This document shows positions 7,472-37,996 of a DNA stretch of 64,000 nt, piece by piece (the first letter of the stretch is position 1; each line of letters opens with the position of its first letter). A program made the position numbers and the translations under genes. The DNA is taken from IMG/VR virus record IMGVR_UViG_3300050821_003228, positions 1 through 64,000 of that record, one strand, 5' to 3'. The notes under the pieces were generated by a model. The model did not search any database, was not told the origin of the DNA, and saw only the letters and a list, made by a program, of their open reading frames with translations. Origin of the DNA: a virus.

Positions 7472-7634
7472 GAACTCAGTCCAACCGGAAGCTTACGCCC
7501 CTGCGGCTGCGGACATAGCCAATACATTCGTATTTGCTTTTATTGTTTATATGTTTATTTAACATCGTCCATACTACGATGACACGCAAGTTAAAAATTA
7601 TTCTGATCGCAATCGAAGCCGTTACACGCCCTCA

Positions 7635-7709
7635 ATAAATGATAAACTCGGGTCCAGACCTACATACTAACCTCAGCTAATACAGTCTTAGAGAACATTT
7701 ATCATTTAT
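7635..7709. repeat. 12-bp inverted repeat spanning 75 nt
   Basis: ATAAATGATAAA (7635-7646) and its exact complement TTTATCATTTAT (7698-7709) flank 51 bases. The right arm ends where the minus-strand tRNA-like CCA begins. Confidence 0.4.
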
Positions 7710-7743
7710 GGTGGACGTGACCGGAGTCGAACCGGTTTCTTAC
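7709..7743 (-). pseudogene. tRNA remnant on the minus strand
   Basis: Reading minus: ACCGG-TTCGACT-CCGGT, then CACGTCC-A-CCA, a perfect T arm plus acceptor 3' strand and CCA. I could not find the matching 5' acceptor strand or anticodon arm within 100 bases, so this is probably a decayed tRNA. Confidence 0.4.
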
Positions 7744-7903
7744 AATAGAACAACTAACCTTCAACGTGCATACTCTTTTGGTGGACATGGTAAAGGTTCC
7801 CGACCAATACTCATTAATAAATTATTAACATCAGCAAGTACAGTTATATACTTATTTACACGCAATTTCATCATAACTATTGTCTCTAGGTTTACGACAA
7901 TAA

Positions 7904-11463: not shown

Positions 11464-11880
11464 ATGAACGCTTTTACCGTTATGTTTGACGGCAGTTGTG
11501 CTCAAAATCCGGGCGGTATGGGCGCTTATGGTTATATCGTATACAAGGGCGCTGAAAAGATTCATGAAGGATACGGTAAAATCGGCCAATGGGACACGAT
11601 GACTAACAACTTCGCTGAATTTTATGCCCTCTATAAAGGATTAGAATATCTCTATTCTATCACAACCTTTCCTGTAATCATAGTCATAAAGGGCGATTCA
11701 GACTTAGTGATCAAAATTATGAGCAATAAATGGAAAGCGCGAAGGGATCGGCCATATTACAAAGCCTATGAAGAAGCGGCCAAATATGTCCGATTATTAC
11801 GAAACTCGGGCGGGCATCTGACGTTCAACTGGATACCAAGAGAGATGAATCAAGAATGTGACGACCTGAGTAAACGATAG
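11464..11880 (+). CDS. rnhA: ribonuclease HI, leaderless
   Basis: 138 aa, full RNase H fold: FDGSCAQNPGG (Asp9), NNFAEFYAL (Glu52), GDSDLVI (Asp78) and ECDDLSK near the C-terminus supply the DEDD metal ligands. It degrades RNA in RNA-DNA hybrids, removing primers and possibly host transcripts. A second RNase H gene lies at 13.1 kb. No Shine-Dalgarno sequence; leaderless promoter. Confidence 0.85.
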   Translation: MNAFTVMFDGSCAQNPGGMGAYGYIVYKGAEKIHEGYGKIGQWDTMTNNFAEFYALYKGLEYLYSITTFPVIIVIKGDSDLVIKIMSNKWKARRDRPYYKAYEEAAKYVRLLRNSGGHLTFNWIPREMNQECDDLSKR

Positions 11881-11939: not shown

Positions 11940-12368
11940 AAATACTGGTAGCTTCCCGGCACTGCGTATACCTTAATTAACGGGCCGATTGTTTGGCCAT
12001 TTTGTAATTGATACCGATAATTATCAAGTAACAGCGTAATCTGTTATCAAAATGGAATGTTAACCTGATGTAATTCCCGGCGATAGATGGAACCTATACT
12101 GAAAGGCATCAGAGGCATCAACTTTATCTCGTATTGTAGCGAGAGAGGAATAGAATATTGCAGGTAGCCAGAACTAACCCATCTGGAACTCAAGCTTGCT
12201 TACCAAGCCAGTGCAGTAATAACTACTTTAGTATCAACATCTTACAAGATATGCTAACGATACTAAAATTAGCTATTATTATTCTAGAATTCAATAATAT
12301 ACAACCAATTATCGAAATAAGACTAGCTTACTAACTTTCAGGTAGGGTTGAGCCGGGTTGTGTTTTTT
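11940..12368 (+). ncRNA. large structured non-coding RNA
   Basis: No coding capacity but dense helices: CCATTTTG (11998-12005) pairs with CAAAATGG and encloses TTGATA/TATCAA and TAACAG/CTGTTA hairpins, a clear three-way junction. TCTCG/CGAGA, CCAG/CTGG, GCTTG/CAAGC and TTTAGTATC/GATACTAAA (nested hairpin inside) follow. CCCGGC (11955-11960, repeated at 12076) can pair with GCCGGG (12352-12357), just before T6 at 12363-12368, a plausible terminator. Size, complexity and a tRNA-rich phage setting recall GOLLD-class RNAs, but I cannot assign it. Confidence 0.6.
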
Positions 12369-12488
12369 AATATGTAATAAATACACTAATGTTTACTAAA
12401 CAGTAATAGCTAGTCAATTTGTTTACTTTATAGTAACTATTAAATATTTATTTTCTCTTTGTTTTCAATGGTTTATACTGTTTTGCTA
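12369..12488. other. AT-rich spacer
   Basis: Contains AGTAATAGCTAGTC near 12402-12415, which can pair with GACTAGCTTACT near 12331, and small TTTACT/AGTAA hairpins. May be a 3' extension of the preceding RNA; no coding signal. Confidence 0.3.
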
Positions 12489-12517
12489 TTGACATTTGTA
12501 TAAACAGGGTGTATAAT
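12489..12517 (+). promoter_or_regulatory. consensus promoter of the virion operon
   Basis: TTGACA (12489-12494), 17-bp spacer, TATAAT (12512-12517). Start near 12524, about 210 bases upstream of the first gene. Confidence 0.85.
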
Positions 12518-12523
12518 TTTATT

Positions 12524-12735
12524 ATAGGGTTAAGTAATAGCCCTAACGATAATAGGGGTGGGCCTCCTCCGGGTCAGCTAAATACTGACTTCCTGCCCCT
12601 TCTTTTAGTGGGGTTGCGTATTTATTACGTCCATTCTTAATAGAGCTTAGCTCCGCATCCCACTATTTTAATTGTTACAATTTGGAGGGAGACTAGCTCC
12701 GTGAAAATCGGAGCGTTTTGTTTTTAGGAGGAGAT
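12524..12735 (+). promoter_or_regulatory. structured leader with attenuator-like terminator
   Basis: Contains AGGG/CCCT, GTCAG/CTGAC inside AGGGG/CCCCT, AGTGGG/CCCACT and GAGC/GCTC helices, and ends with a terminator directly before the ribosome site. CTCCTCC (12564-12570) is a perfect complement of the Shine-Dalgarno GGAGGAG (12727-12733). The terminator 5' arm GCTCCG occurs twice (12650-12655 and 12696-12701), so exclusive pairings are possible. It looks like a cis-acting antitermination or attenuation element. Confidence 0.6.
12696..12725 (+). terminator. intrinsic terminator in the operon leader
   Basis: GCTCCG / CGGAGC stem with loop TGAAAAT, then GTTTTGTTTTT, one base before the ribosome site of the first gene. 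Confidence 0.75.
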
Positions 12736-13071
12736 ATGGGTATTTATCAAATAGATAACCAAGAAGTAACTGATGTTAAATCAGTAAGTTATATGGATCG
12801 GGATGAACAGTTAGAACTTCCTTTTCCACCCCCGGCGCAAGTAAATCCGAAAGAAAGGGTTGAAAGTCCTCGGGAGAAGATGTTGCGTGAAAAGCAAGAG
12901 CAAGAAGAGTTGTTCCGTCAATTTAGGACTGTTCTTCAAGGTCGAGATGTCGCAACGGAACATAAGCAACAAGTCTTTATCACAGTCTTGAATAACTTTA
13001 AAAACGGGAATCCAGCGATTTCAAATCTTTCTCGTTCCTTCCTTCTTGAGTTTCTATTGCGTGGTTTATAA
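12736..13071 (+). CDS. hypothetical protein, first gene of the virion operon
   Basis: 111 aa, acidic N-terminus, proline stretch (LPFPPPAQ) and a charged helix (SPREKMLREKQEQEELF). AGGAGGAG ends three bases before ATG and fixes the start; an upstream TTG in frame lies in the terminator. The end overlaps the RNase H gene. Not recognised. Confidence 0.65.
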   Translation: MGIYQIDNQEVTDVKSVSYMDRDEQLELPFPPPAQVNPKERVESPREKMLREKQEQEELFRQFRTVLQGRDVATEHKQQVFITVLNNFKNGNPAISNLSRSFLLEFLLRGL

Positions 13072-13456
13072 ACTTTATACCGATGGCGCGGTCACTCGTA
13101 ATCCCGGTGGGACTGCCTCATATGGTTTCGTTCTTTTTCTTGATGATCAAGAAATTAGCTTTGGGTATGGCATTATTGGTTCTAGTGCGAAAATGAATAA
13201 TGTACTCGCAGAATATTATGCCATTTCTCAAGGGTTAGCGGACTTTACCCGACATTGGGATAAGCCGAAGAGTCAGTTGTATATTTACAACGATTCAAAA
13301 TACGTTGTTAGCCAAGTATGGAAAGATCGAATAGTTGGCTTTCAATTGCAACAATTGCAACAACATCTTGACGTTAAAGTAGCATGGATTCCTCGAATAC
13401 AAAATATTCGGGCCGATGATCTGGCGAAACGTTTAAGATCGCCTGAAATTGCCTAG
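13061..13456 (+). CDS. second RNase H-like protein
   Basis: 131 aa from GTG; TTG at 13046 is an alternative. YTDGAVTRNPGG, NNVLAEYYAIS, YNDSKYVV and RADDLAK match the four metal-ligand motifs of RNase HI. It differs clearly from the first RNase H in the middle and C-terminal parts, so the two are divergent paralogues or separate acquisitions. Its place at the head of the virion operon is unusual. Confidence 0.75.
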   Translation: MVYKLYTDGAVTRNPGGTASYGFVLFLDDQEISFGYGIIGSSAKMNNVLAEYYAISQGLADFTRHWDKPKSQLYIYNDSKYVVSQVWKDRIVGFQLQQLQQHLDVKVAWIPRIQNIRADDLAKRLRSPEIA

Positions 13457-24822: not shown

Positions 24823-25249
24823 AGAGTATCAATCTGGGGATATGCAGTGGTTATGGAATTGTTATAAAAACTACCTTCCTGAATTGAATTTAAGGTCGCC
24901 TATATCCGGGTTTTCTCAATTTGCTGATGCTGTTGAGAAGGATAAAACTTTTATATACAATAATGAAAACATTAATTGTGGTTTCATAACTTCGTTTGTA
25001 GATGAAGGATCGCCGTGGATTTGGACCGTTGTGGTCAGACTTGATTGGCAAAATAAAGGTATCGCTACAAGGTTGATTAATAAGGTTGAGGAGCATTATA
25101 AGAATTTAGGTTATAGCCATATATGTCTTTATGTGGCAGACGATAACCCGGCCCAGAAATTATATTTTGATCTTGGTTATCGTGTTGTTCGAGTTATGAA
25201 GGGCGTTTATGGAGATAAACCGGCCCTTAAAATGGTTAAATATTTTTAG
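24815..25249 (+). CDS. GNAT-family acetyltransferase
   Basis: 144 aa, complete GNAT domain: WTVVVRLDWQNKGIATRLIN is motif A with Q-x-x-G-x-A, and NPAQKLYFDLGYRVV is motif B. GTG start overlaps the scaffold stop. Acetylates an amine with acetyl-CoA. Its location next to an ATP-grasp gene and the capsid gene suggests modification of a virion component or peptide. Confidence 0.8.
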   Translation: MIREYQSGDMQWLWNCYKNYLPELNLRSPISGFSQFADAVEKDKTFIYNNENINCGFITSFVDEGSPWIWTVVVRLDWQNKGIATRLINKVEEHYKNLGYSHICLYVADDNPAQKLYFDLGYRVVRVMKGVYGDKPALKMVKYF

Positions 25250-25257
25250 GAGTGAGG

Positions 25258-25929
25258 ATGATTAATCAGAATAGCATGTTGTATTGGTGGCCTAAGATTA
25301 AAGATTTAGGCATACCAGTTCCTAGAACTGAAATTGTTGAGTTTGGTTCACAAGATTTTACATCTTCAGACCGATTAGAAGAACGGGTCAACCTTATTGG
25401 TTTGCCTGTTTTTATACGTACCGATCTTTGTTCAGGTAAGCATGATTGGAATCAATCTTGTTTTGTTGACCGAATGAATGTTCTTATACAACGGTTTGCT
25501 AAAGTTGATGAGAATAATGTTCGTTGGCGAATGTTGGGTATTGAACCAAAAGCATTGGTTATTCGTGAGTTTCTTGATTTAGAATCGTCATTTCGGGCAT
25601 TTATTGGTAATATGCCGATTACTAAGGAACGACGTTATTTTGTTAAAGATGGTAAAGTTATTTGTCATCATCCCTATTGGCCTGTCACAGCATTTAATAA
25701 TCATCCAGCACGAATGGTTGATGATATTAATTGGAAACAAAAACTTGAAATATTAAATCAAGAAGATGATTCTGAAAGTATATTAGTTAACTATGCTGAG
25801 AAGGTTAGTTGGGCGGTTGATGGTTATTGGTCAATAGATTTTGCTAAGGGAAGGAATGGTAAATGGTATTTAATTGATATGGCTTTAGGAGAGAATTCAT
25901 ATCATTGGGCGGGCTGTAAAAAGATTTGA
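25258..25929 (+). CDS. ATP-grasp-like ligase
   Basis: 223 aa. PVFIRTDLCSGKHDWN, VIREFLDLESSFRAF, RRYFVKDGKVICHH, and WSIDFAKGRNGKWYLIDMAL follow the order of ATP-grasp domains ending in the E/D-N-type metal site. Predicted to form an amide or similar bond using ATP. ATG with AGGAG five bases upstream preferred over a GTG six bases earlier. Paired with the GNAT gene. Confidence 0.65.
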   Translation: MINQNSMLYWWPKIKDLGIPVPRTEIVEFGSQDFTSSDRLEERVNLIGLPVFIRTDLCSGKHDWNQSCFVDRMNVLIQRFAKVDENNVRWRMLGIEPKALVIREFLDLESSFRAFIGNMPITKERRYFVKDGKVICHHPYWPVTAFNNHPARMVDDINWKQKLEILNQEDDSESILVNYAEKVSWAVDGYWSIDFAKGRNGKWYLIDMALGENSYHWAGCKKI

Positions 25930-26105
25930 AAGTATCTTATCGGATTATAAGGTACTATCCCGAGTGCGTGAGGTAACTTTGATTTACTTTAGTCAAAGAT
26001 AATTGATTCCGGTCGGATTACCGGATAGGTTGATCGCAGTGAAGTCAAGTGAGTCCCTGACTATCAAAATTATTTTGAAGATCGGGCCATTTGTTAAGGA
26101 AAAAT
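25930..26105 (+). promoter_or_regulatory. structured leader of the capsid gene
   Basis: Hairpin AGTATCTTAT / ATAAGGTACT with loop CGGATT, hairpin CTTTGA/TCAAAG, hairpin CCGGT/ACCGG again with loop CGGATT, and AGTCA/TGACT. Two different stems presenting the same hexaloop suggest a protein- or ribosome-binding RNA element before the most highly expressed gene. Confidence 0.5.
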
Positions 26106-27592
26106 ATGTCTTTTTCTCCATCAAGTAATGTACAGTCAAATTTACCTCAATCGACTGTAAAGTACTATGATAAAAAGTTTAGGGAGAATTTGAAGGCTCA
26201 GACTCCTTTCGTTGCTTGTGCAGAACGTTTGGATTTGCCTATGAAGTCTGGTAACCAATACCAGATGTTCATGTACGTGCCTTTGGCTGGTAATACTAGT
26301 CAGACTGCACAAGGTACAGTGGGCGCGGGTATTCAAGTATCTGTCCTAACTACGACAGCAACGATTGGCGAATACGCTGATTACGCATCGTTCTCTAGTT
26401 TGTCTCTTGCAACTGCAATCGACAATACTGTAGAAAATGTTGCGAGAGAGATGTCTTATCGTCTTGGTGAGTCATTGAGCGCACTTGTTCGTGCAACTGC
26501 TGACGGAGCAAACTCTGTTGATAGTTCTGTATTGACAAGTCTTGCTGCAACAAGTACTACTAGTTTTACAACTTTGAGTCTATCTCAAATCAGGAATTCA
26601 GTTCAGTCACTAGCTGGCCGTTCTGTGCGTCCTTTTGATGAAGCTTCAAAGGCTTTCGCGGGCGTGATCCATCCGTTCGCTTTGGGTGATGTATTGGCTG
26701 ACAATTCAAATGACAGCCCAATCGACATCTTGAAGCACACTCCCGTAGGTCAAGCACGAATGGATGAGTTAGTCTCTGTTGATTTGACAGAAGTCATTGA
26801 ACTTCCCGCATCGGGCGTTCATTTCTTCCAGTCTAATCAAGTTACTACCACATCTAACTATAAGTCTGTAACTGGATTGACTGCGTTACGTACTTATATT
26901 TTCGGGCGTGATGGAATCTTCGCTATCAACCTTGGCGCACAAGGCGACGTAGGTTATGGTGACGGAGAATGGCAGAACATTTATATTGGTGTTCTTTAAA
27001 TCTTTTTTAATTGACTCGAACCCTGAAATGGCAACGAGGCGCAAGCAGAGAAATCGTGCAGCGTGAGAGACTAAACAAAGAGACTCAGAAATGAGATGTA
27101 ATAGTCCGGTCTAGTGCAAATAAAAGTACTAGAGATAGACAGAAATGTTCTATCCTGTGAAAACAGTAACAATTCGCAAATGTAACATCGTTCAAAACGC
27201 TGAACCTAGCGTTGCGGACCCTGAAGGTTTGATTCCCGGCTTTATAATTGTCTGGCCGGATTATCTGGACTAAGAAGTTAGGGACAAGTTATCGCGTGCA
27301 TTTTACGACGAGCCTTGGCCCAGATACAACCATTAAAATTGTACTAGTAAAATGGATACACGGTGGTTGTTAAATTTACTCTGATTGACTTGAACGCTGA
27401 AATGCCAACAAGGGGCAAGCCGAAAGGCAGCCTGAGAGACTAAGCGAGTAAACACGGAAACGTGATGCGATAGTCCGTTCTAGTTGTTAATAAGTAAACA
27501 CTAGAGGTTAGCAGAAATGACTAATCCCGCCGAAAGGTGAGTAACAAGTAAGTCGTATCCGCGAAATTGATTCAGCATCGGCCATAAGTTAA
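26106..27592 (+). CDS. major capsid protein, N4-gp56-like, split by two group I introns
   Basis: Exon 1 26106-26980, exon 2 27177-27333, exon 3 27553-27592. Exon 1 alone encodes 291 residues typical of the N4-gp56 capsid family; read through it would stop at 26999, losing the conserved C-terminus. Exon 2 supplies NIKCNIVQNAEPSVADP and SYRVHFTTSLGPDTT, exon 3 IRIREIDSASAIS. Both 5' splice sites make P1 helices with a U.G pair. Within exon 2 the frame shifts by +1 at a near-duplicate ATTGTCTGG/ATTATCTGG (27247-27268); removing 13 nt gives one frame of 352 aa. AAGGA precedes ATG. Confidence 0.75.
26981..27176 (+). ncRNA. group I intron 1 (196 nt)
   Basis: P1: exon GAACAT (26975-26980) with GTGTTC (26989-26994), U.G at the cut. 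P3/P4 region begins TTGACTCGAA; P7 strands GACTA (27069-27073) and TAGTC (27102-27106); P8 hairpin CTCA-GAAA-TGAG; then CTAGT/ACTAG and GATAGA/TCTATC P9 hairpins. Ends in G. Core-only, no ORF. Confidence 0.85.
27334..27552 (+). ncRNA. group I intron 2 (219 nt)
   Basis: P1: exon ACAACCAT (27326-27333) with GTGGTTGT (27363-27370), 8 pairs with terminal U.G. Core parallels intron 1 (TTGACTTGAACGCTGAAATG), P7 GACTA (27438-27442)/TAGTC (27471-27475), P8 CACG-GAAA-CGTG, P9 hairpins, ends in G. The two introns are clearly related to each other. Confidence 0.85.
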
Positions 27593-27651
27593 TGAAAATA
27601 AAGGACTTAATAATCCAATGTTAATTAGTTGATAAGTGGCAAAATATTATA

Positions 27652-27686
27652 TTGACATAAGGCGGTATATATGATATACTGTCCTT
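27652..27686 (+). promoter_or_regulatory. leaderless-type promoter
   Basis: TTGACA (27652-27657), 17-bp spacer, TATACT (27675-27680), six bases to ATG at 27687. Confidence 0.85.
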
Positions 27687-28247
27687 ATGTTGATATATGA
27701 TTTAGCTGGTCAAGTATTTTCAAAATTAAAAGTTCGTTGCAAAGACGGTAAAATAGGTACTCGTACTGCTTGGTTATGTGATTGTGAATGCGGCGGCACA
27801 ATAAGAACTATTCGTAAGAGTCTTCGTAATCGAAGTACCAAAAGCTGTGGATGTCTACGGCAAAAAGTAGGCCGCGCAAATAAAACGCACGGTGCAACAG
27901 TAGGCGGTAAACCGACTGTTGAATATTTTGCTTATATAAATGCAAAACGGCGTTGTAATAGCCCAAAAGCACAGGCATACGGTCGCTATGGTGCTCGTGG
28001 TATAAAATTTAATTTTACCAGTTTTGAAGAGTTTTTTTTTGAAGTTGGGCCACGTCCCTCAATAAACCATTCGCTAGACCGCATTAATAACGACGGGCAT
28101 TATGAAAAAGGTAATGTAAAGTGGTCAACTTATAAAGAACAGGCAAATAATCGGCACACTTCGTTAAAATATGTAAGAATGTTAGAGGAGCAAGTAAAAA
28201 ATTTAGAGGAACAATGCCGGTTGATGAAAATGGAGAAGAGTACATAG
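27687..28247 (+). CDS. HNH homing-type endonuclease, leaderless
   Basis: 186 aa. N-terminal zinc module (WLCDCECGG, KSCGCLR), then YGARGIKF, the HNH core HSLDRINNDGHYEKGNVKWS, and NNRHTS, the standard order for phage HNH proteins of this type. It follows the intron-split capsid gene, so it may drive spread of the introns or neighbouring DNA in trans. Confidence 0.85.
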   Translation: MLIYDLAGQVFSKLKVRCKDGKIGTRTAWLCDCECGGTIRTIRKSLRNRSTKSCGCLRQKVGRANKTHGATVGGKPTVEYFAYINAKRRCNSPKAQAYGRYGARGIKFNFTSFEEFFFEVGPRPSINHSLDRINNDGHYEKGNVKWSTYKEQANNRHTSLKYVRMLEEQVKNLEEQCRLMKMEKST

Positions 28248-28372
28248 ATTGGTGTACAGTTTTAGTATCTCATATTATACGTTGTGAGAAACATAAAAAA
28301 TGGGATTGCAATGATAAAGAATGTGATCGGTTAGCTTGTATAAAGATTGAAGAGATAAGTGGGACGGACTAA
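28214..28372 (+). CDS. small Cys-containing protein
   Basis: 52 aa (MPVDENGEEYIDWCTVLVSH, later CNDKECDRLAC). AGAGGA before ATG; overlaps the HNH gene end. Stop sits in the terminator stem. Unknown. Confidence 0.5.
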   Translation: MPVDENGEEYIDWCTVLVSHIIRCEKHKKWDCNDKECDRLACIKIEEISGTD

Positions 28373-28390
28373 ATCCGTCCCTTTTTCTTT
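28361..28390 (+). terminator. rho-independent terminator
   Basis: GGGACGGA / TCCGTCCC perfect 8-bp stem, loop CTAAA, then TTTTTCTTT. Confidence 0.9.
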
Positions 28391-28410
28391 GGGCCGATTT
28401 TGGAGGATAA

Positions 28411-28824
28411 ATGGAGATAAAAGAGGCGGAACGATTGGTTTCTGAATTACAGAAAGCCAATCAAATAGTCGGGTTTGTAAAGAGGGGCGAGACTCTAAAT
28501 AAAGAAAAGGATTTTAGGAATAAGAGACAAAAAGAATGTAATCATCGTAAGGGACACGTTATTAACAGTTACATTGATAATCGTGGCGATTTACATACTG
28601 ATGTTACTGTTTCTGGTTCAAAATATAATAATTATTCGATAATTAAACATACATTCTTTCGGGGAGATACTTGGGTTATATGTCCGAATTGTGGTAAAAA
28701 GTGGAAGCCGGGCGATACTGATTATGAAGTTGCATTAAAATTTCCTACCAATAACCAAGCATCTGCATCAATCCAAATGACTGTAGATGTTAATCAGGCT
28801 CGACAATTAACTAAAGAGAGTTAG
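28411..28824 (+). CDS. zinc-binding phage protein, paralogue of 30005-30586
   Basis: 137 aa: CNHRKGH, IIKHTFFRGDTWVICPNCGKKW, YEVALKFPTNNQ. The same blocks in the same order occur in the protein at 30005. Likely zinc ribbon of unknown role, in the virion operon. GGAGG precedes ATG. Confidence 0.65.
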   Translation: MEIKEAERLVSELQKANQIVGFVKRGETLNKEKDFRNKRQKECNHRKGHVINSYIDNRGDLHTDVTVSGSKYNNYSIIKHTFFRGDTWVICPNCGKKWKPGDTDYEVALKFPTNNQASASIQMTVDVNQARQLTKES

Positions 28825-28832
28825 GAGGAGTT

Positions 28833-29027
28833 ATGGAGGAGTGTGTACGCTGTCAATTATTGACAGAAGTAATAGACGAATTATCGCATGAATTGGCGAA
28901 GGCTCAACAAGGAAGACGGGCCGCGTTCAGAGAATCCCTTGCTTTAAAGAGATTGTTACTGATCGACATGGAAGTAGAACATGAAAAAGCGATAAGTCAG
29001 GCTGATGGGTTTGGAAATTCGGCGTAA
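28833..29027 (+). CDS. small coiled-coil protein
   Basis: 64 aa, CVRC at the N-terminus, then a continuous helix (LTEVIDELSHELAKAQQGRR). GGAGGAG before ATG. Unknown. Confidence 0.6.
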   Translation: MEECVRCQLLTEVIDELSHELAKAQQGRRAAFRESLALKRLLLIDMEVEHEKAISQADGFGNSA

Positions 29028-29182
29028 TCATTCGGAAGGTCGGATTACTGGAAAAATGATTATGGGGTAGGGAGAGAAGGCCAATCGTAACTATCCGGTA
29101 AAGAGGAAGCGGCCTGATCCGCTGTCTCGATTTTTATTTCGTGTGAAGGTTCCCTCTCGGAGCCTAACGGGAGGGAGCATTC
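29028..29182 (+). other. leader with hairpins
   Basis: Contains GCGG/CCGC and CCCTC/GAGGG type hairpins immediately upstream of the TTG at 29183. No gene. Confidence 0.35.
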
Positions 29183-29785
29183 TTGGATACAGTAAAAGAT
29201 AATCGAGCACCGTGGGAAACTTATTCTCTAGACGAGAAGTTAGATCAACGGTTAGAAGAAGAAGTTAACGAATATAGTAAGAAGAGACATACTAAAACGT
29301 CAGAGCAAAATGCTGAAGAATTGGCCCGTTGGGAAGAAGAAAACCAACAATTAGCTAGACAGTACCAATTTTTAACACCTGATGAATATCGTGATGAAGG
29401 CGCACGAATCGGTAAGATCATACACTCCTCAAAATTTTTGAATATACTTCGGAAAGAATTCAAGCTGAATGCGTGGTATCGAATTCATCCTCACAAAGAC
29501 AAGTTAACTCTGATAGTTCAAAGAAAGAACTTTGAACCGGAAGTTGCTTGTTGGGCAATGAAGGGATTCATGCCGGAGTATGAAATCGTTCGATTTGATA
29601 AATATGGCGTGCCGTTAGATTCTAAATATCGTGGGTGGAGAACCTGTTGCCTTCAGATGATATTGAAGGGTATATTGAACGAGAAGGATGTAGACCGAGT
29701 ATTTGGTCGGGCACAAGGACCGGCATCAGAGAGGTATTGTAGTACGTTATTTGAGATTCGTAATCATTATGCGAAAGCGGTATAG
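29183..29785 (+). CDS. hypothetical protein
   Basis: 200 aa, TTG start with GGGAGGGAG upstream. Charged helical N-terminal third, then a compact domain (NAWYRIHPHKDKLTLIVQRK, GFMPEYEIVRFDKYGVP). No family recognised; context suggests a virion-associated role. Confidence 0.6.
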   Translation: MDTVKDNRAPWETYSLDEKLDQRLEEEVNEYSKKRHTKTSEQNAEELARWEEENQQLARQYQFLTPDEYRDEGARIGKIIHSSKFLNILRKEFKLNAWYRIHPHKDKLTLIVQRKNFEPEVACWAMKGFMPEYEIVRFDKYGVPLDSKYRGWRTCCLQMILKGILNEKDVDRVFGRAQGPASERYCSTLFEIRNHYAKAV

Positions 29786-29792
29786 GAGGAGT

Positions 29793-29996
29793 ATGAGTGG
29801 TTGGGGATTTGATCTAGGTGATTTAAAGAAGGATTATAAAGGTGTCATTAGAAAGAAATTGATGAATGGTTATCAATTAGATGATCCTTTAGTTTATTTT
29901 GAATTTAAGTACAACATTGAAACGAAGGAAGCGGCCAGACTATTGATTGATCGTTTGACTAAGTTAATAGATGAATGTGATCAGTACGGATTATAG
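29793..29996 (+). CDS. hypothetical protein
   Basis: 67 aa starting MSGWGFDLGDLKKDYKG, chosen because GGAGGAG lies just before this ATG. Helical, charged. Confidence 0.6.
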   Translation: MSGWGFDLGDLKKDYKGVIRKKLMNGYQLDDPLVYFEFKYNIETKEAARLLIDRLTKLIDECDQYGL

Positions 29997-30004
29997 GAGG
30001 AATT

Positions 30005-30586
30005 ATGACAGAAGCAGTTACACCGGTACAGAAGAAACAATCGCTTGAAGATATGGAGTTAGAGTTTAAGCGATTAGAAATTGAAGCTAAGAAATTAGAG
30101 TTGTTAGATATACGTGATCGCGTTGATGATCGTCAGATGAAGCGCGATAATCGTGAACAAAGGACGAGGGCGAACGGTCAGGTATTAGATAATAACCTAG
30201 CTCAACGCCGTGCTGTTCAAGAACAGTGTAACCACCGTAAGGGTGGTAACGGGTTAGAAGGATTTGCGTCTGGACAAGGCGATGATCCTCAATATGCAGT
30301 GCTAAAGCATCAATTTCTTAACAGTGATGTTTGGGTCCGTTGTCTTCGTTGTGGTAAGTGGTGGAAACCACCTGTCGAGTCATCTTTCTATTTTGATGCG
30401 CGAGGAAGAGAAGTTGCCTCTAAAGATGGCAAGTTTGATGCAGAGAAGTTCGCTCAAGCTAAAGCTGAATACGCTATCGCGCTAAAGTTTCCTACAAGGA
30501 ATTCGATGTCAGGATCATACCAGTTCAAATTCTCAGACGGCGGTCAAGTATTTCGTGAAGCAACGAAAGATACCGACAAGACTTAG
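30005..30586 (+). CDS. zinc-binding phage protein, paralogue of 28411-28824
   Basis: 193 aa. Helical N-terminus, then CNHRKGG, VLKHQFLNSDVWVRCLRCGKWWKP and YAIALKFPTRNS. The CxxC pairs suggest a zinc ribbon. Shares its block order with the 137-aa protein upstream, indicating duplication. Confidence 0.65.
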   Translation: MTEAVTPVQKKQSLEDMELEFKRLEIEAKKLELLDIRDRVDDRQMKRDNREQRTRANGQVLDNNLAQRRAVQEQCNHRKGGNGLEGFASGQGDDPQYAVLKHQFLNSDVWVRCLRCGKWWKPPVESSFYFDARGREVASKDGKFDAEKFAQAKAEYAIALKFPTRNSMSGSYQFKFSDGGQVFREATKDTDKT

Positions 30587-30593
30587 GAGTTAA

Positions 30594-31706
30594 ATGAGCA
30601 GCAACAGTAGCGTTAAATTAAATCAGCTTGTTGATGATGCAAATTCAATGGGGGATTTAGCGCCCGCTTTGGCTACAGGCGGGTTTTCTGATGCCCCGGC
30701 TATTTCTATCGCTAATGATGTGATGGCCGCGATGATCCTCGGTGGAGCACAAGGTCAGCCGTTAAATCATAAATGGAATCGTATCAATGTCGCGCCATTT
30801 CCAACGATTAGTTATCAGCAAGATTATTTAACGAATATCGTAAATCTTGCGTGGATTGAATCGGCTTGGGCTACAAATATTAATCAGACTCAGGTTATTA
30901 AGCAGAAAGTTCAACTTGAAGTTCATCGTGATCTTCTTGTTACATATTGGCAATATGGTTATCCCGGTAAAATCTGTTGGATGCAGAATGATACATTATC
31001 GACAGGAGTTTGGGGATTACACCCCTTCGGGCCGACTGCTGGAAATCCTTCCGGTGAAACAACTTCTATCTTCGGTAATATAACAGGATTACAGAATCCC
31101 GGCCCCGGCGTAATATATACAAATCCGATCGGCGCGTCTCCAAGTGGGCCGATAAATGCTACCACGAATATTACTGATCCTAATGGTAATCTTTGGGTGG
31201 TAACGACATTTGGTACTTGTGGAACTGTTCAACCAACTTGGCCGACTACACCGGTTTATCCGACTTATAACAGTCCGTCAACTGTGGCAACTACAGTGAC
31301 AGATGGAACAGTCGTATGGACGGCAATCAATCCGAAGGGGCAGGGATTCAGATTAAATCCGATTCCTTCTCAAACAGGGTGTGTATGGTTAATTCAACCC
31401 GTTTGTCAAGCAAGGGCAGTTCAGTTTACAAGTTTAACTCAGACACTTGATCCTGTTCCTGACGATTATGCGACATACTTTAAGCAAGGATTTTTTGCTC
31501 AATGTTATCGTCGTAGTCCTGATCCCAAGGTTCGAGCAAAGTTTGCTGATGAGTGGCGTCTTTGGCTCGACTCGTTAAATCGTTCAGTTTTGAGCGGTCA
31601 ACGTGAAACTGACGATATGGGATTTTATCCCTCAAATTCTATAATGGATTCTGGGGTTGGATGCTATCAGTGGTTTCCTACAATCGGTTATCCGTATGTA
31701 GTATAA
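30594..31706 (+). CDS. tail tube/adaptor-like protein
   Basis: 370 aa. KWNRINVAPFPTISYQQDYL at the N-terminal part and PVPDDYATYFKQGFFAQCYR near the C-terminus are shared with the protein at 32242, with a Gly/Thr/Pro-rich beta insertion between. The set resembles podovirus tubular A (gp11-like) head-tail connector proteins. Confidence 0.6.
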   Translation: MSSNSSVKLNQLVDDANSMGDLAPALATGGFSDAPAISIANDVMAAMILGGAQGQPLNHKWNRINVAPFPTISYQQDYLTNIVNLAWIESAWATNINQTQVIKQKVQLEVHRDLLVTYWQYGYPGKICWMQNDTLSTGVWGLHPFGPTAGNPSGETTSIFGNITGLQNPGPGVIYTNPIGASPSGPINATTNITDPNGNLWVVTTFGTCGTVQPTWPTTPVYPTYNSPSTVATTVTDGTVVWTAINPKGQGFRLNPIPSQTGCVWLIQPVCQARAVQFTSLTQTLDPVPDDYATYFKQGFFAQCYRRSPDPKVRAKFADEWRLWLDSLNRSVLSGQRETDDMGFYPSNSIMDSGVGCYQWFPTIGYPYVV

Positions 31707-31714
31707 GGAAAATT

Positions 31715-31990
31715 ATGAAAAAGAAAATGAAAAGTAAAGAATCACACATGTCTGGTGGAACTCCACCGGCAGATACTAAGCCTGAATATCCAGAACAGTT
31801 TGGAAAAAAGGCCGGTTTAGGTCGTTTACGTAAGGGTGGTGTTCAACCCGATTATCCAGAAGGTCATTGTCTAGGCCCATTTAAAGGTACTCGCGCCGGA
31901 GCAAAGCGTCATGGCGATAATCGTATTATGATTGGTTATCCCGATGCGCCGATGGCCGGTGATGGACATCCGGGTGCCCATCAGAACTAG
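31715..31990 (+). CDS. hypothetical basic protein
   Basis: 91 aa, Gly/Pro-rich and basic (MKKKMKSKESHMSGGTPP). AAGGA precedes this ATG. Low complexity; perhaps a disordered virion protein. Confidence 0.55.
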   Translation: MKKKMKSKESHMSGGTPPADTKPEYPEQFGKKAGLGRLRKGGVQPDYPEGHCLGPFKGTRAGAKRHGDNRIMIGYPDAPMAGDGHPGAHQN

Positions 31991-31998
31991 GAGAGTTT

Positions 31999-32235
31999 AT
32001 GATTGATTCAGTTTTAGCTTCTGAAATAAGGTCACGCACTACTTTTGCTTGTTGTTCAGATAGTCAAACAACTTTTATGTTGATTGGTGGTCTGCTATGG
32101 CAAAATAATGGCGATGGTTGGAATCCGGCAGGCTATGGGTTAATGGATAAAATATTTGATAAGCACTCGACTATAAGAATTAAACGAACACTTGTAATTG
32201 ATAGTGCTCATCGAACAACTGAAGTTGAATTATAA
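31999..32235 (+). CDS. hypothetical protein
   Basis: 78 aa, mixed sequence with CCSDSQTTFMLIGGLLW. GGAGAG before ATG. Not recognised. Confidence 0.6.
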   Translation: MIDSVLASEIRSRTTFACCSDSQTTFMLIGGLLWQNNGDGWNPAGYGLMDKIFDKHSTIRIKRTLVIDSAHRTTEVEL

Positions 32236-32241
32236 GGAAAT

Positions 32242-33153
32242 ATGGCAAGTTCTAGTATATTATTACTCAACACGCTCGAATGGGCGAAAACCTTTAATTT
32301 CGGTCGTAGTTTTGCTAATGGTACTTATCTAGAACCTGCTATGACTAGTGCTAATACTGTCCTTCAGACAATTGTTGGTGCTCCTTTTTCTTGGCGCTGG
32401 AACCGTGTTGTTACGGGGTTTATATCTACAATCGGGCAACAGGATTATCTTGTCATCAATTGGTCTGCTTCATTACCTGTTACAGTCGGCACGTATTTAG
32501 TTGATGCTGCCGGATATAGTCAGAAGGTGACTACAGCCGGAACTACAACAACTTCTATTCCTTCATTTAATGCGACTCCGGGTGGAACTACAACTGATGG
32601 AACGGCGGTATGGACTAATCAAGGCTTGATTCCAACAAAGACATCATCAACCTATTCTCTCGCGTGGATTGAAACTTCAAGCATTCAAGATGTCACGTTG
32701 ACATCGCCCGCTTGGATTGAAATGGAGAGTAAGACGGTTCTCGGTTTAGAATCGAAGCAATCTCGTTCCCGTTTCATTTCTGCTCAATTGAATGACAGTC
32801 TCGGTAACATGACTTTCAGGTTGATGCAAACACCCGATAAGACATATCCTGTAGCAATTACAATTCAACAAAAACCGGGTCTATTTACAAGCGTTAATCA
32901 AACGTGGTCGCCCATTCCTGATGAATATTCGCATATTTATAATTGGGGATTTCTTGCGATGATGTATATGTACGCTGATGATCCTCGTTTTGCTTTCGCA
33001 AATCAAAAGTTTGTTGCTCATCTTTTAGCCGCAAGCGAAGGATTAACTGACACAGAGGTCAATATTTTTCTTCAGAATTGGCAGTATGTGACAGGTTCGC
33101 CTATAGAAAAAACTATCAGAACACAGCAAGGTGGGCAAGCGCGGGGGACATAA
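32242..33153 (+). CDS. tail tube/adaptor-like protein, second copy
   Basis: 303 aa. FSWRWNRVVTGFISTIGQQD and PIPDEYSHIYNWGFLAMMYM align with the protein at 30594, which has a longer middle. Predicted connector/tubular A-like component. Stop overlaps the next ATG (TAATG). Confidence 0.6.
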   Translation: MASSSILLLNTLEWAKTFNFGRSFANGTYLEPAMTSANTVLQTIVGAPFSWRWNRVVTGFISTIGQQDYLVINWSASLPVTVGTYLVDAAGYSQKVTTAGTTTTSIPSFNATPGGTTTDGTAVWTNQGLIPTKTSSTYSLAWIETSSIQDVTLTSPAWIEMESKTVLGLESKQSRSRFISAQLNDSLGNMTFRLMQTPDKTYPVAITIQQKPGLFTSVNQTWSPIPDEYSHIYNWGFLAMMYMYADDPRFAFANQKFVAHLLAASEGLTDTEVNIFLQNWQYVTGSPIEKTIRTQQGGQARGT

Positions 33154-33536
33154 TGGACCGTTGGATAACAGAAGATGACCGTAGTTTATTAGAGCTAAGT
33201 CTCGCCTCAGATCAGTATCATCAGACTACGAAGGCCGATTTTTATTTCAAAACGGGCACTTTTACTAAGTGTTATGAGGACGAACAAGGGCCGGTTTTAT
33301 TTATTCGTGGCGCGAAGTCCCTTCGGGTTGATATACAGTTTTTGAATAATTATGATTATGAACGTAATCGTAAAATGTTAATTGATAACTTCGCTTCTTT
33401 TGTTAATCAATGTAAGTCTGCTGGATTTCAGGAACTAGTGTTTAACACTACGAATCCGTTATTACGTCGATTTTGTAAGCAAAGTTTGAAGTTTGAAGAT
33501 GTTGAAGGTAACGAGTTAAGATATTTCATAGAGTGA
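33153..33536 (+). CDS. GNAT-like small protein
   Basis: 127 aa from the ATG overlapping the previous stop. GPVLFIRGAKSLRVDIQFLN and FQELVFNTTNPLLRRFCKQS look like the strand-helix pattern of degenerate acetyltransferase-fold proteins common next to podovirus tail genes. Weak call. Confidence 0.45.
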   Translation: MDRWITEDDRSLLELSLASDQYHQTTKADFYFKTGTFTKCYEDEQGPVLFIRGAKSLRVDIQFLNNYDYERNRKMLIDNFASFVNQCKSAGFQELVFNTTNPLLRRFCKQSLKFEDVEGNELRYFIE

Positions 33537-33540
33537 ATAA

Positions 33541-36500
33541 ATGCCAAACCAAACGGCAATGGCCGGTTCTCAATCACAGAAACAGAAAGCGCGTAAGTAT
33601 GCTCCTATTTGGGTAAACCGCTTCATTTCTGGGTATTGGCCGAACCGTAATCCGCTCCGTGATGCTTCACTTCCTGTTTTACAAGAAAAATTTTATGGAG
33701 CGTTGAATGATGCTCTCTACGATGGGTTAAATTGTGAACTGAATACGAAGTCAGAATTAACTCGTCGTGCGGGCAATTCAATCTTTGATTCTAATACTTT
33801 CGGCCCGCAACAACGTTTTTATTCGTTCCCCGTTTTTGGCAATAATGCTAATTCTTATCAGCGTGTATTAACTTCATCAAGTTCACAGATTACCGATATT
33901 ACTGGCGGGGGAAATAATGTTATTTATAATCGTGCCCAATTAGTACAAACTGGAACGTTAGTTAATATTACAACTTTGAATACTCCAATTTTTGTTTTAG
34001 TTGGTAGTATTAATAATATGTTTGTCGGACAGAAGTTGAATATTGATGTCGGAGCTAGTGCCGAAGTTGTTACTGTTTTGGGTCTTGAAAATGTGTCCGG
34101 TGGGGTTCTTTTCCAAGCTGTATTTACTAAAACTCATGGCGTTGATACATTAGTTGCTGCCCCATATTCAACAAAGGTAACATTTCAAGCAATTGGTGAT
34201 ACAACATTTTTTGCCGATCAATACAATCCAAGTCAATTATTGAGTTTCATTAGTTCATGGACAGCCAATACTATTTTTCAAATTGGCACTGGAATTACTG
34301 ACAGTAATGGTAATGTCCAAAAGAATTTGGGCGCTGCCGCCGCTATTACCAGTATTACGATTTCATCGGCTGTCCCTCAATATTCAGTTCAAATAACATA
34401 TACAGGGACCATTCCTGTTGTTGTTAGTAGTAAAGTTACTTTAGTCAATATCAATTATTATCCATTTACATTTTTAAATGGTACAACGCAAACAGTAACG
34501 GCCACTGGTGTAAATACTTTCACATTTTTAATAAACAATACTGTTCCAATTGGAACCAGTTCATTAACCGGCGCTACTTATGTTTTAGGTACTAATAATG
34601 TTGGTTCTACTGGAACAACACAACCGGCTTGGAGTACATCATATCAGGGGCTAACGTTTGACGGTAATACAATTTGGCAGTATAACGGCCACGCGGTACG
34701 TAACATCGGTATTGTAGCTCCTACAACTTCTCCCGTTGTGACTAATACGCCCGCACCGCCAACGGGAAATCCGTGGGCTGCAAGTACTTATTATTTCCCC
34801 GGACAGGTGATTTATGATTCAACTGGTACGACTGTTCAACAGTTAACAACTGCTGGAACTACAGCGGGGGCACCGCCAGTGTTTGCGACGACAGTTGGTG
34901 TAACAACTAATGACGGGTCCGCTGTGTGGACATGCATTGCTTCAGGAGCAAGTGGAAGTACTTCAGCAACTCGCGCCGTTTCTACTGCTTATGCTGTGGG
35001 AGCAATTACATTAATAACATGGACGAAAACGTTCATTAGTGGGTATAATACATCACAGAATAGCGATACTCCGGGGCATACAGTAGCTCCTGCAACTCCG
35101 ATTTATAGCACCGTTACATATTCAGCATTTTTTCAATGTACTATTGCCGGAACTACATCATCAACAGCAACAAATTCAATTTCTTGGCCGTTATCAGGCA
35201 CCTATGTGGATGGTGGGGTAACTTGGGCATTTGTTGGTCTTCAAATAAAACGAGGAGCAACCTCATCTTCGCCTTCAGTAACAACTTCAACATTTACGTT
35301 TGGTGTTATTGGTAATACAACATTAGTATCAATTTTTGGTAGTCTTGCTATTGTTAATTTTGTTTCGGCCCCATTGAATGATGCTGTATCTTCGGGCGGT
35401 GGTGCTGGTAATTTTGAAGTTATCGCGTTGGCCGGTTTAAGTGGTTCTACTCATCCAACATGGCCTTCAGGTGCTGGTTCAAGTGGGGTAACGACGGTTG
35501 ATGGTGGAGCGAACTGGATTAGCGCCGGTTCTGCCGGTTCTGCTGCTAATACTGGATATTGGACTTATGCATATGCATTTTTAAGTTCAAGCACTCCTGA
35601 TATTTCATCGGCAAGTCCGCTATCTGTTCCTATTATTCGTGCTCCGGGATCATTCATTTCTATTAGTGGTCAAGGTGATCCTAATAATATGTTCCTTGAT
35701 GGCGTAGATACAATAAGAATATACCGCAGTACTCAGCAAGCAACTAACGTTGCATTGCCGGGGGCCGACCTTTTCTGGATTGCTGATATCCCAGCAATGA
35801 TTAATCCAATTATAGGTTCAGGATTAGCATGGAATTTTGTTGACACAACTAATGATCCACCTGATCCTAATAGCACGATGAATAATCAGATTATTGCGGA
35901 TACTATAGGAGTTAATACTACTCCACCTTCGGCTATAACGAATTTGGTTTATTATCTTGGCCGACTTTGGGGATCAATCGGTAACACGGTTTATGCAAGT
36001 GCTGGACCGGATGTGTTAAATGGTGGAAACCCGTTTACGGCATTTCCGCCGTCTAATTTTATGGATTTTCCGGCAACAGTTGTACGTATGGTTTCATCGT
36101 CTCAAGGATTGATGGTCTATACGTCTTCTGGTGTACAAGTGGTCACTGGTAACGGTGTCGCCCCTGTCGGTTCATTTTCTGGATTTACTACATTTGTGCC
36201 TGTTATCTTTGCTGAGGGAATTTCTCTCGGTAGTTATGACAATTTGGCAATTGATGGTGGAACAACATATATTTATACAACTGACCGTAATCTTGTAAGT
36301 ATTTCATCTAGCGGATTACGTTGGATGAGCACGGCAATTGCTAATAAACTGATTGCCCCGTTCAATCTTCCAGATGGAACGAATGTTGATTTTAATCCAG
36401 CAAACACTTATTTGTCATGGTATGTCAACAGTGATGATTATGGTCTATTTCTTTCAGATGGTAAAACCGGCTGGTTTAGAATGATGCCAAGTACATCTCC

Positions 36501-37020
36501 TGATGCTGGTAATATGGTTTGGAGTCCATTTGCAGAGATTGCTGGTGGAGTTTCCGCCGTGCAGAATATTGAAGTAACACCGGGCATACATAAGTTGTTA
36601 GTAGCTCCGGGCGTTAGCGGCCCAATCTTACAAAGGGATACAACTGTCAACCTTGATAATAATGCAACATATTCGTGGTTTGCTACGTTTGGAAGTGTCA
36701 TATTGGCACATCCGGGCGAAATAGCGATGGTTCAAGCGATTACTGTTGACTCAATTGCTGTCGGTAGTCATCCAACTTTGACTGTCTATTTCGATGAAAT
36801 TAATAATGTAAACCCGAATGTTTATACTAATTACAAGTATGATCCATATTCGGCAAGTCAATCGAATACAGTCTTCGCTGACAGATTCTTTATGTCAGAA
36901 GATACTACTGCTAACGCTATTTGTCGTCATCTTCAGTTCACTATTGGATTCCCCGCTGAAAACGCGGCTAACACCGTACTATCAGCAACTATCATAGGCG
37001 CAACTGAATACGATAATTAA
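33541..37020 (+). CDS. large tail nozzle-type protein
   Basis: 1159 aa. RFISGYWPNRNPLRDASLPV, EKFYGALNDALYDGLNCELN and TRRAGNS are the N-terminal signature of gp12/tubular B-type stabilisation proteins; a long Thr/Gly-rich beta insertion (residues ~150-680) precedes a propeller-like C-terminal part (GGTTYIYTTDRNLVSIS). Expected at the distal tail. Confidence 0.65.
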   Translation: MPNQTAMAGSQSQKQKARKYAPIWVNRFISGYWPNRNPLRDASLPVLQEKFYGALNDALYDGLNCELNTKSELTRRAGNSIFDSNTFGPQQRFYSFPVFGNNANSYQRVLTSSSSQITDITGGGNNVIYNRAQLVQTGTLVNITTLNTPIFVLVGSINNMFVGQKLNIDVGASAEVVTVLGLENVSGGVLFQAVFTKTHGVDTLVAAPYSTKVTFQAIGDTTFFADQYNPSQLLSFISSWTANTIFQIGTGITDSNGNVQKNLGAAAAITSITISSAVPQYSVQITYTGTIPVVVSSKVTLVNINYYPFTFLNGTTQTVTATGVNTFTFLINNTVPIGTSSLTGATYVLGTNNVGSTGTTQPAWSTSYQGLTFDGNTIWQYNGHAVRNIGIVAPTTSPVVTNTPAPPTGNPWAASTYYFPGQVIYDSTGTTVQQLTTAGTTAGAPPVFATTVGVTTNDGSAVWTCIASGASGSTSATRAVSTAYAVGAITLITWTKTFISGYNTSQNSDTPGHTVAPATPIYSTVTYSAFFQCTIAGTTSSTATNSISWPLSGTYVDGGVTWAFVGLQIKRGATSSSPSVTTSTFTFGVIGNTTLVSIFGSLAIVNFVSAPLNDAVSSGGGAGNFEVIALAGLSGSTHPTWPSGAGSSGVTTVDGGANWISAGSAGSAANTGYWTYAYAFLSSSTPDISSASPLSVPIIRAPGSFISISGQGDPNNMFLDGVDTIRIYRSTQQATNVALPGADLFWIADIPAMINPIIGSGLAWNFVDTTNDPPDPNSTMNNQIIADTIGVNTTPPSAITNLVYYLGRLWGSIGNTVYASAGPDVLNGGNPFTAFPPSNFMDFPATVVRMVSSSQGLMVYTSSGVQVVTGNGVAPVGSFSGFTTFVPVIFAEGISLGSYDNLAIDGGTTYIYTTDRNLVSISSSGLRWMSTAIANKLIAPFNLPDGTNVDFNPANTYLSWYVNSDDYGLFLSDGKTGWFRMMPSTSPDAGNMVWSPFAEIAGGVSAVQNIEVTPGIHKLLVAPGVSGPILQRDTTVNLDNNATYSWFATFGSVILAHPGEIAMVQAITVDSIAVGSHPTLTVYFDEINNVNPNVYTNYKYDPYSASQSNTVFADRFFMSEDTTANAICRHLQFTIGFPAENAANTVLSATIIGATEYDN

Positions 37021-37026
37021 GGAAAT

Positions 37027-37254
37027 ATGGAACGTTTTTTAACGCCCGAACAAGTTGAAAATTTGGGCATGACAGTATCAACTATGAGGCACGGCTCGTT
37101 AACCGGGCCGATGCCTATAAACCCCGTAATTGCTTTCTATCGTGGGCCATTACCTTCAACAAGTACATTTACTGATAGTGTTGTAAATTTTTATACTGAG
37201 AATAATTTTCGTAGTCAAAGACTATTTCAGCCCCGATTGAATGGAAGTCTTTAA
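37027..37254 (+). CDS. hypothetical small protein
   Basis: 75 aa; AAGGA before ATG. Pro/Thr-rich; follows the nozzle gene. Unknown. Confidence 0.55.
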   Translation: MERFLTPEQVENLGMTVSTMRHGSLTGPMPINPVIAFYRGPLPSTSTFTDSVVNFYTENNFRSQRLFQPRLNGSL

Positions 37255-37261
37255 GGAATGC

Positions 37262-37996
37262 ATGTTTATAACGACTAGAATAACATGGGATTTATCAGGT
37301 AAAGTTATTGAACATGAGGGCTATTTTTATTCCGGGCCGATTTCATCCCTTTGTGGCGCTTCATCGCAGCAAAATCAGATAGAGGCTCAGCAACAAGCCT
37401 ATTATCAAACTTTGACACAACAGGCGCAACAAGAATTCGGCCAAGCATCAAAAGTCTTTGATGATCTTTATGCTGCAATGAGTCCTATAGTTGCTGCTGG
37501 AATTAATCAACAAGGATTTTCAACTGGTGAATTACAGAACTTGAATTCAATAGCTGAAACTAGTTCTGGTGAAGCTTATAGTGCGGCTGCCCAGAATGTT
37601 CGTGAACAAGAGGCCGCTGCTGGCGGAAGTAATTTCGTTCCATCGGGCGCGAATGAACAGATTAACGCTGAAGTTGCTGCTCGTGGTGCAGGACAAACGG
37701 CGGGTGAATTAAATCAGATCGAACAGGCTAATTATGCTACTGGACGATCAAATTATCTAGCCGCTGCTGGCGATTTATCTGCTGCAACAGGAACTTATAG
37801 TACTTCAATTGGTGCAGCTAACGCCGCTACTGCGGGCGGAAATGCTGCTGCCAATACTGCCAACCAAATTGCACAAGAGAATAATTCGTGGGTCGGGGCC
37901 GTAACTGGCGCTCTTGGTGGAATCGCGGGATCAGTTGTTTCTGGTGGTATGAGTAATCTTGGTAAAGGTGTTGGATTCTTCGGACAGAACGGATAA
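37262..37996 (+). CDS. internal virion-like protein
   Basis: 244 aa from ATG with AAGGA five bases before; an ATG at 37241 is an alternative. Gln/Ala-rich helical body (QQAYYQTLTQQAQQEFGQAS), Gly-rich hydrophobic C-terminus (VTGALGGIAGSVVSGGMS). Composition and order match gp14-like ejected membrane-active proteins. Confidence 0.55.
   Translation: MFITTRITWDLSGKVIEHEGYFYSGPISSLCGASSQQNQIEAQQQAYYQTLTQQAQQEFGQASKVFDDLYAAMSPIVAAGINQQGFSTGELQNLNSIAETSSGEAYSAAAQNVREQEAAAGGSNFVPSGANEQINAEVAARGAGQTAGELNQIEQANYATGRSNYLAAAGDLSAATGTYSTSIGAANAATAGGNAAANTANQIAQENNSWVGAVTGALGGIAGSVVSGGMSNLGKGVGFFGQNG

What the first reader, a model, noticed from the sequence alone, without database searches (positions are those of the whole stretch)
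12489..12738. Attenuator-like leader controls the virion operon
A consensus promoter is followed by a ~200-nt folded leader, an intrinsic terminator that ends one base before the ribosome site, a duplicated terminator arm (GCTCCG) allowing exclusive folds, and an upstream CTCCTCC exactly complementary to the Shine-Dalgarno sequence. This could be a cis-antitermination element or switch for late genes, or a ~200-nt small RNA.
Basis: partly seen in the sequence, partly recalled or inferred. Interest (0 to 1): 0.75.

Follow-up and report, generated by a model that had tools for sequence, protein, structure and literature searches.

The report
Conserved RNA hairpin leading phage late-genes
Just after the promoter of the virion-gene operon, this soil phage and eleven relatives (the one isolate infects Acidobacteriota) make the same small RNA hairpin with an invariant CCUCCUCC bulge; it is a previously uncatalogued control element, probably one that helps transcription of the very long late operon, though how it works is not yet proven.

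Summary
The observed anatomy is real: a 12/12 sigma70-type promoter (12489-12517), a folded ~200-nt leader, an intrinsic terminator (12696-12714 plus U-tract) touching the ribosome site, then ATG 12736. The interpretation needs correction. The GCTCCG 'exclusive fold' is not supported (pairing probability 0.000, 5 kcal/mol worse). CTCCTCC/Shine-Dalgarno complementarity alone is expected of any strong SD, and nested pairing to it is predicted in only two of twelve lineages.

The real find is in relatives. CCUCCUCC is the invariant core of a small RNA hairpin (12555-12599): a covarying lower stem ending GG/CC, a one-sided 8-nt CCUCCUCC bulge, and a covarying upper stem opening with U-A. It occurs once per record, at the same place (5' leader of the late operon), in 12 diverged lineages of Tunturi_3-like phages; it is present in every searched record with the terminase and absent from those without it. 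12 of 15 pairs show compensatory change; no Rfam match. Four of twelve leaders carry an intrinsic terminator before the first gene. The first gene differs in three lineages, so the element appears to serve the operon.

Best mechanism: cis-acting, put-like aid to transcription through terminators (about 0.4). Rivals: SD pseudoknot control, trans-acting anti-SD RNA.

The parts
12489..12517 (+). Late promoter, TTGACA-17-TATAAT; start of transcription expected near 12524
   Evidence: 12/12 consensus; a sigma70-type promoter precedes the hairpin in nearly all relatives
12545..12549 (+). AACGA just 5' of the hairpin, shared in similar form by several relatives (ACGAGATAG in L002, L137, L215; AACGA in L132, L133, L138)
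   Evidence: read from leaders; not tested statistically
12555..12599 (+). Conserved hairpin: lower stem GGGGTGGG/CCTGCCCC (12555-12562 with 12592-12599), upper stem GGGTCAG/CTGACTT (12571-12577 with 12585-12591)
   Evidence: CM R1 match 37.3 bits; covariation in 12 lineages
12563..12570 (+). Invariant CCUCCUCC one-sided bulge (anti-SD-like sequence)
   Evidence: identical in 11 of 12 lineages; CUCCUCC in L137
12607..12664 (+). Second leader hairpin; relatives often have an unrelated GC-rich hairpin in this place (L002, L133, L138, L217, L218)
   Evidence: fold; relatives' folds
12696..12725 (+). Intrinsic terminator with U-tract, directly before the ribosome site
   Evidence: equivalents in L132, L137, L218
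12726..12733 (+). Shine-Dalgarno AGGAGGAG, complementary to the bulge (7 nt)
   Evidence: sequence; duplex -13.2 kcal/mol
12736..13071 (+). First gene of the late operon, 111 aa, no family match; not detectably the small AGNT...RSGQKI protein found first in most relatives

Best explanation
The feature is the 5' leader of the late (virion) operon of a Tunturi_3-like phage (likely host phylum Acidobacteriota), and its core is a conserved cis-acting RNA hairpin (12555-12599) with an invariant CCUCCUCC bulge. SHOWN by computation: conserved sequence, covarying structure, one copy per record, fixed promoter-proximal place, presence in every searched record that has this phage group's terminase. INFERRED: as it leaves RNA polymerase the hairpin is recognised, through the bulge and the flanking conserved GG/CC and U-A pairs, by the elongation complex or an associated factor and makes transcription resistant to termination, so that the leader terminator here and the terminator after the major capsid gene can be passed and the tens-of-kilobases late operon is made. 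It would work like HK022 put or a nut/LoaP leader without being one of them.
For: 12 diverged lineages (terminase 55-60% identical to the window's), hairpin always in the 5' leader, 34-60 nt after the -10 box where that box is clear and 39-178 nt before the first start codon. Covariation: 96.3% of cells paired, 12 of 15 pairs with compensatory change, 0 of 500 shuffles, slid controls at or below 46%; RNAalifold finds the same structure unaided. G-U pairs are kept in several lineages, which points to RNA, not DNA. One copy per record, none in pol-only relatives or Tunturi_4; presence follows the terminase exactly (with the weak but syntenic L137 copy read). Intrinsic terminators lie in the leader in 4 of 12 lineages (window, L132, L137, L218) against 0.06 expected per leader (binomial about 0.005). 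A strong terminator also lies right after the major capsid gene in Tunturi_3, G005 and G006, and after the MCP/HNH region in the window, with no promoter of 11/12 or better for many kilobases beyond. The first gene differs in window, L132 and L138 although the hairpin stays, arguing for an operon-level role.
Against: 8 of 12 leaders have no intrinsic terminator by the strict scan. Post-MCP terminators could simply be leaky dosage terminators, as T7 T-phi after gene 10 (own knowledge), and would be pointless if polymerase were permanently terminator-proof. The model does not match HK022 DNA 25000-40000, no NusG-type factor is encoded, and there is no expression or biochemical evidence. The anti-SD letters of the bulge are not explained by this model.
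Confidence: 0.4

Rival explanations
1. Translational control in cis: the CCUCCUCC bulge pairs with the first gene's Shine-Dalgarno sequence, as a pseudoknot that keeps the lower stem or as an alternative fold, and holds the first late gene (and by polarity the operon) off until a signal or ribosome opens it.
For: Every leader has a GAGGAG/GGAGGA/GAGGA-type complement downstream; best duplex -9.7 to -13.2 kcal/mol, mostly at the SD. In L132 and L133 the strong GAGGAG is not at the first start codon but still present. In the window, fold probability of bulge-SD pairing is 0.42 and in L138 0.65.
Against: Any strong SD is complementary. Nested folds show no bulge-SD pairing in most lineages and SD accessibility does not change when the bulge is replaced by A8. 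L002 and L212 have only 5-nt complements at the SD. The bulge stays invariant while the SD varies. First genes differ. Pseudoknots were not computed.
Confidence: 0.25
2. Trans-acting small RNA: the leader is released (by the terminator or by processing) and its exposed CCUCCUCC seed blocks Shine-Dalgarno sites of host or early phage mRNAs, as the anti-SD hairpins of the alphaproteobacterial ar14 RNAs such as NfeR1 do.
For: ar14 RNAs carry an ultraconserved CCUCCUCCC in unpaired regions of hairpins whose stems vary freely, and silence mRNAs at the SD (PMC10746234); here too CCUCCUCC is fixed and stems covary. Window, L132, L137 and L218 would give discrete RNAs ending at a terminator.
Against: 8 of 12 leaders have no terminator; the hairpin never leaves the 5' leader of the late operon; only one seed; the inner stem pairs (GG/CC, U-A) are conserved beyond pairing, unlike ar14; no Rfam match.
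Confidence: 0.15
3. Binding site for a phage or host protein on the late mRNA (for example a ribosomal protein, cold-shock protein or nuclease-protection factor) that sets mRNA stability or autoregulates late expression.
For: A sequence-conserved bulge flanked by conserved closing pairs is typical of protein-binding bulges; position at the 5' end suits a stability element.
Against: No candidate protein identified; no direct evidence.
Confidence: 0.15
4. No RNA function: a chance leader or a DNA-level site (operator, packaging or origin element).
For: The region is at the early/late junction of the genome.
Against: Covariation with G-U pairs, always downstream of a promoter on the same strand; the same DNA pattern in 85k bacterial genomes gives only background hits, the five acidobacterial ones inspected lying in unrelated sequence with no visible promoter.
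Confidence: 0.05

Closest known systems
HK022 put RNA (protein-free processive antitermination element)
   Same: Phage RNA element just downstream of an operon promoter, followed by terminators, acting (here: proposed) in cis
   Different: put is ~70 nt with two stem-loops on early transcripts of a lambdoid phage (PMC9378689); this is one bulged hairpin on a late transcript; model R1 finds nothing in HK022 25000-40000
ar14 / NfeR1 ('cuckoo') anti-SD small RNAs of Alphaproteobacteria
   Same: Invariant CCUCCUCC(C) in an unpaired part of a hairpin whose stem sequence varies
   Different: ar14 RNAs are free trans-acting RNAs with three such hairpins (PMC10746234); here a single one-sided bulge inside an mRNA leader, in phages of the Tunturi_3 group, with conserved pairs next to the bulge
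Attenuator leaders (terminator/antiterminator) of bacterial operons
   Same: Promoter, folded leader, intrinsic terminator before the first gene in 4 of 12 lineages
   Different: No competing antiterminator fold found; terminator absent in most lineages
Tunturiibacter phage Tunturi_3 (PP885686)
   Same: Cultured relative with the same gene order and hairpin (93714-93753)
   Different: No terminator in its leader; the describing paper (PMC11924767) does not mention promoters or regulatory RNA

Membership tests
HK022-type put RNA | Two stem-loops of ~70 nt with put sequence | tested here: not met
   Single conserved hairpin of ~45 nt; model finds no match in HK022 25000-40000
HK022-type put RNA | Located just downstream of an operon promoter | tested here: met
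   34-60 nt after the -10 box where it is clear
HK022-type put RNA | Suppresses termination in cis without phage protein via the RNA polymerase zinc-binding domain | not testable with these tools
   Needs transcription assays
ar14 / NfeR1 anti-SD sRNA | Ultraconserved CCUCCUCCC in unpaired regions, stems variable | tested here: met
   CCUCCUCC in 11 of 12, CUCCUCC in one; 12 of 15 pairs compensatory
ar14 / NfeR1 anti-SD sRNA | Three such hairpins in one free RNA; match to a described family | tested here: not met
   One hairpin per record; no Rfam match
Transcription attenuator with exclusive folds | Antiterminator helix competing with the terminator | tested here: not met
   GCTCCG 12650 pairing P = 0.000; 5.1 kcal/mol worse
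LoaP/NusG-paralogue RNA antitermination | Specialised NusG-type protein encoded with the element | tested here: not met
   No PF02357 match in 14 phage records, control genomes positive; a host-encoded one is not excluded
Known Rfam family | Match to a curated covariance model | tested here: not met
   No match at gathering score or at E <= 5 except an irrelevant microRNA hit at E = 1.7 on the other strand

The most novel reading that the evidence does not exclude
A protein-free or host-factor-dependent antitermination RNA built on a CCUCCUCC-bulge hairpin, unrelated to put, that lets Acidobacteriota phages transcribe their whole late operon from one promoter: a second independent origin of RNA-only polymerase control in phages.
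Probability: 0.25. Interest if true: 0.82.

Novelty: new variant of a known kind. Interest (0 to 1): 0.62.

Why it matters
It gives a defined, covariation-supported RNA element at the control point of late gene expression in phages whose cultured member infects Acidobacteriota, an abundant but little-studied soil group. A cultured member (Tunturi_3 on Tunturiibacter psychrotolerans X5P2) makes it testable. If it acts on RNA polymerase it would be a new instance of RNA-only antitermination outside lambdoid phages; if it acts through its anti-SD letters it would be a new way for a phage to steer ribosomes.

Tried and rejected
Single-protein relative searches with the first gene, second RNase H and DNA polymerase found nothing; the first RNase H and a DNA polymerase alignment did. 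A loose DNA pattern for the hairpin returned 119 mostly chance hits; only the RNase H relatives were real. A first MAFFT alignment of the hairpins misaligned the 3' arm (A6); N-padding of loops fixed it (A7), and the later 12-sequence alignment came from the model (A9). Antiterminator via the GCTCCG repeat: rejected. Conserved nested SD sequestration: rejected as a general feature. Bacterial chromosomes as a source: 88 pattern hits, background. NusG-type phage factor: none. The tool alignment of the upstream RNA region failed because of wrong reverse-strand coordinates (A10); the scripted alignments were used instead. Four of the twelve lineages (L212, L215, L217, L218) were found by a sequence pattern that fixes GGGCCTCCTCCTR and TACCC, so they test pairing but not the invariance of the bulge; the other eight, found by protein similarity or being the window itself, do.

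Full report
OBSERVATION. A 12/12 promoter TTGACA-17-TATAAT lies at 12489-12517, a terminator at 12696-12714 with U-tract to 12725, AGGAGGAG at 12726-12733 and ATG at 12736. The leader 12524-12727 folds with z = -3.0. No Rfam family matches.

CONTEXT. The window is part of a 97.8-kb virus record. DNA polymerase (-) and an RNase H (+) lie on the early side; terminase, portal and major head genes lie downstream on the + strand. The closest cultured relative is Tunturiibacter phage Tunturi_3, isolated on an Acidobacteriota host (DNA polymerase 42%, terminase 53%, RNase H 43% identity). Its description paper names no regulatory RNA (PMC11924767). That the window phage itself infects Acidobacteriota is inferred from this relationship.

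THE CONSERVED ELEMENT. RNase H relatives and Tunturi_3 showed the same promoter, then GGCCTCCTCC, an upper hairpin, and a closing arm, although the stem letters differ. A DNA polymerase alignment brought in more relatives with the same element. A covariance model and a stricter DNA pattern raised the count to 12 lineages: window, L002, L127 (Tunturi_3), L132, L133, L134, L137, L138, L212, L215, L217, L218. L137, whose bulge is CUCCUCC, scores only 14.8 bits but lies at the expected place between promoter and first late gene.

STRUCTURE. On the 12-sequence alignment 96.3% of paired cells are standard pairs, 12 of 15 pairs have changes on both sides, and none of 500 shuffles reaches the observed values; sliding the partners drops pairing to 34-46%. 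This alignment is fitted to the model, so the count leans toward it, but the slid and shuffled controls are far away and RNAalifold predicts the same helices. Conserved beyond pairing are CCUCCUCC, the GG/CC pairs below it and the U-A pair above it. The bulge is open in the conserved structure. G-U pairs occur in several lineages, as expected for RNA.

DISTRIBUTION. The element occurs once per phage record. Every searched record that encodes the terminase has it, and records that share only the DNA polymerase do not. The same DNA pattern in 85k bacterial genomes gives 88 hits; the best model scores among the loci returned are below those of most phage copies, and the five acidobacterial hits that were read out lie in unrelated sequence with no visible promoter. 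The element therefore belongs to this phage group's late module.

TERMINATORS. Four of twelve leaders (window, L132, L137, L218) have a strict intrinsic terminator between hairpin and first gene; the background rate on the same loci is 0.06 per leader, so about 0.7 expected. Others have a GC-rich hairpin without U-tract or none. A second strong terminator follows the major capsid gene directly in Tunturi_3, G005 and G006, and follows the MCP/HNH region in the window; no promoter of 11/12 or better lies within many kilobases beyond it. Late transcription thus seems to start mainly at one promoter and to cross terminators.

WHAT IT DOES. The hairpin always sits 5' of the operon, but the first gene is not always the same: most lineages have a small AGNT...RSGQKI protein, while window, L132 and L138 have others. 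This favours an operon-level, cis-acting role. The best mechanism is antitermination or processivity control through the elongation complex, put-like in logic; HK022 put is described as a promoter-proximal RNA that lets polymerase read through terminators without phage protein (PMC9378689). It is not a put family member: one hairpin instead of two, no model match in the HK022 stretch searched. No NusG-type partner is encoded.

RIVALS. Pairing of CCUCCUCC with the SD is energetically possible in all leaders, but nested folding predicts it only in window and L138, and replacing the bulge does not free the SD elsewhere; a pseudoknot remains possible and untested. The anti-SD hairpins of NfeR1/ar14 small RNAs (PMC10746234) are a striking sequence analogue, so a trans-acting leader RNA is kept as a rival; most lineages lack a terminator that would make it.

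NOVELTY. No Rfam family and no paper found in the searched library describes this element. It is a new cis-regulatory RNA family of a known general kind (promoter-proximal phage leader element). The structure and location are well supported; the mechanism is inference at about 0.4.

Noticed in passing
window 11940-12370; L127 4730-5140; L002 6490-6910: A second noncoding region of ~430 nt with its own sigma70-type promoter lies between RNase H and the late promoter. In nine relatives it has conserved blocks (CTACAGCAGT, GTTCTGG..CCAGTTTT-CCGGGCAACGG, ACGTCCCGGT, GGAAAGCC..GTGTATCTA); scripted alifold on seven gives 24 of 54 pairs with compensatory change. No Rfam match. Window copy strongly diverged. 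Possible new large structured RNA.
   Followed up: partly
window 26091-28247: The major capsid gene looks split by group-I-intron-like stretches (near 27012-27140 and 27388-27500) followed by an HNH endonuclease; MCP homologues in G006, G010 and G014 are also interrupted. Rfam does not call the introns.
   Followed up: partly
window 28361-28381; L130 7507-7528: Strong intrinsic terminator right after the major capsid gene in Tunturi_3, G005 and G006 (after the MCP/HNH region in the window), reminiscent of T7 T-phi.
   Followed up: partly
window 7493-7769 (-); L132 9842-10049: Phage-encoded permuted tmRNA (Rfam RF04321), tag ANTNVLAMSAAAGA in the window, beside a large set of tRNA genes.
   Followed up: no
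window 11464-11880 and 13046-13456: Two RNase H genes flank the noncoding late-promoter region.
   Followed up: no
L002 7607-8152, L127 5286-5666, L212, L133, L134, L137, L217, L218: First late gene in most relatives is a small protein with an AGNT motif near the N-terminus and a C-terminal RSGQKI-like end; function unknown.
   Followed up: partly
window 43881-43909 and 45119-45147: Two further perfect 12/12 promoters in the late half, the second before a tRNA cluster; neither carries the hairpin.
   Followed up: no
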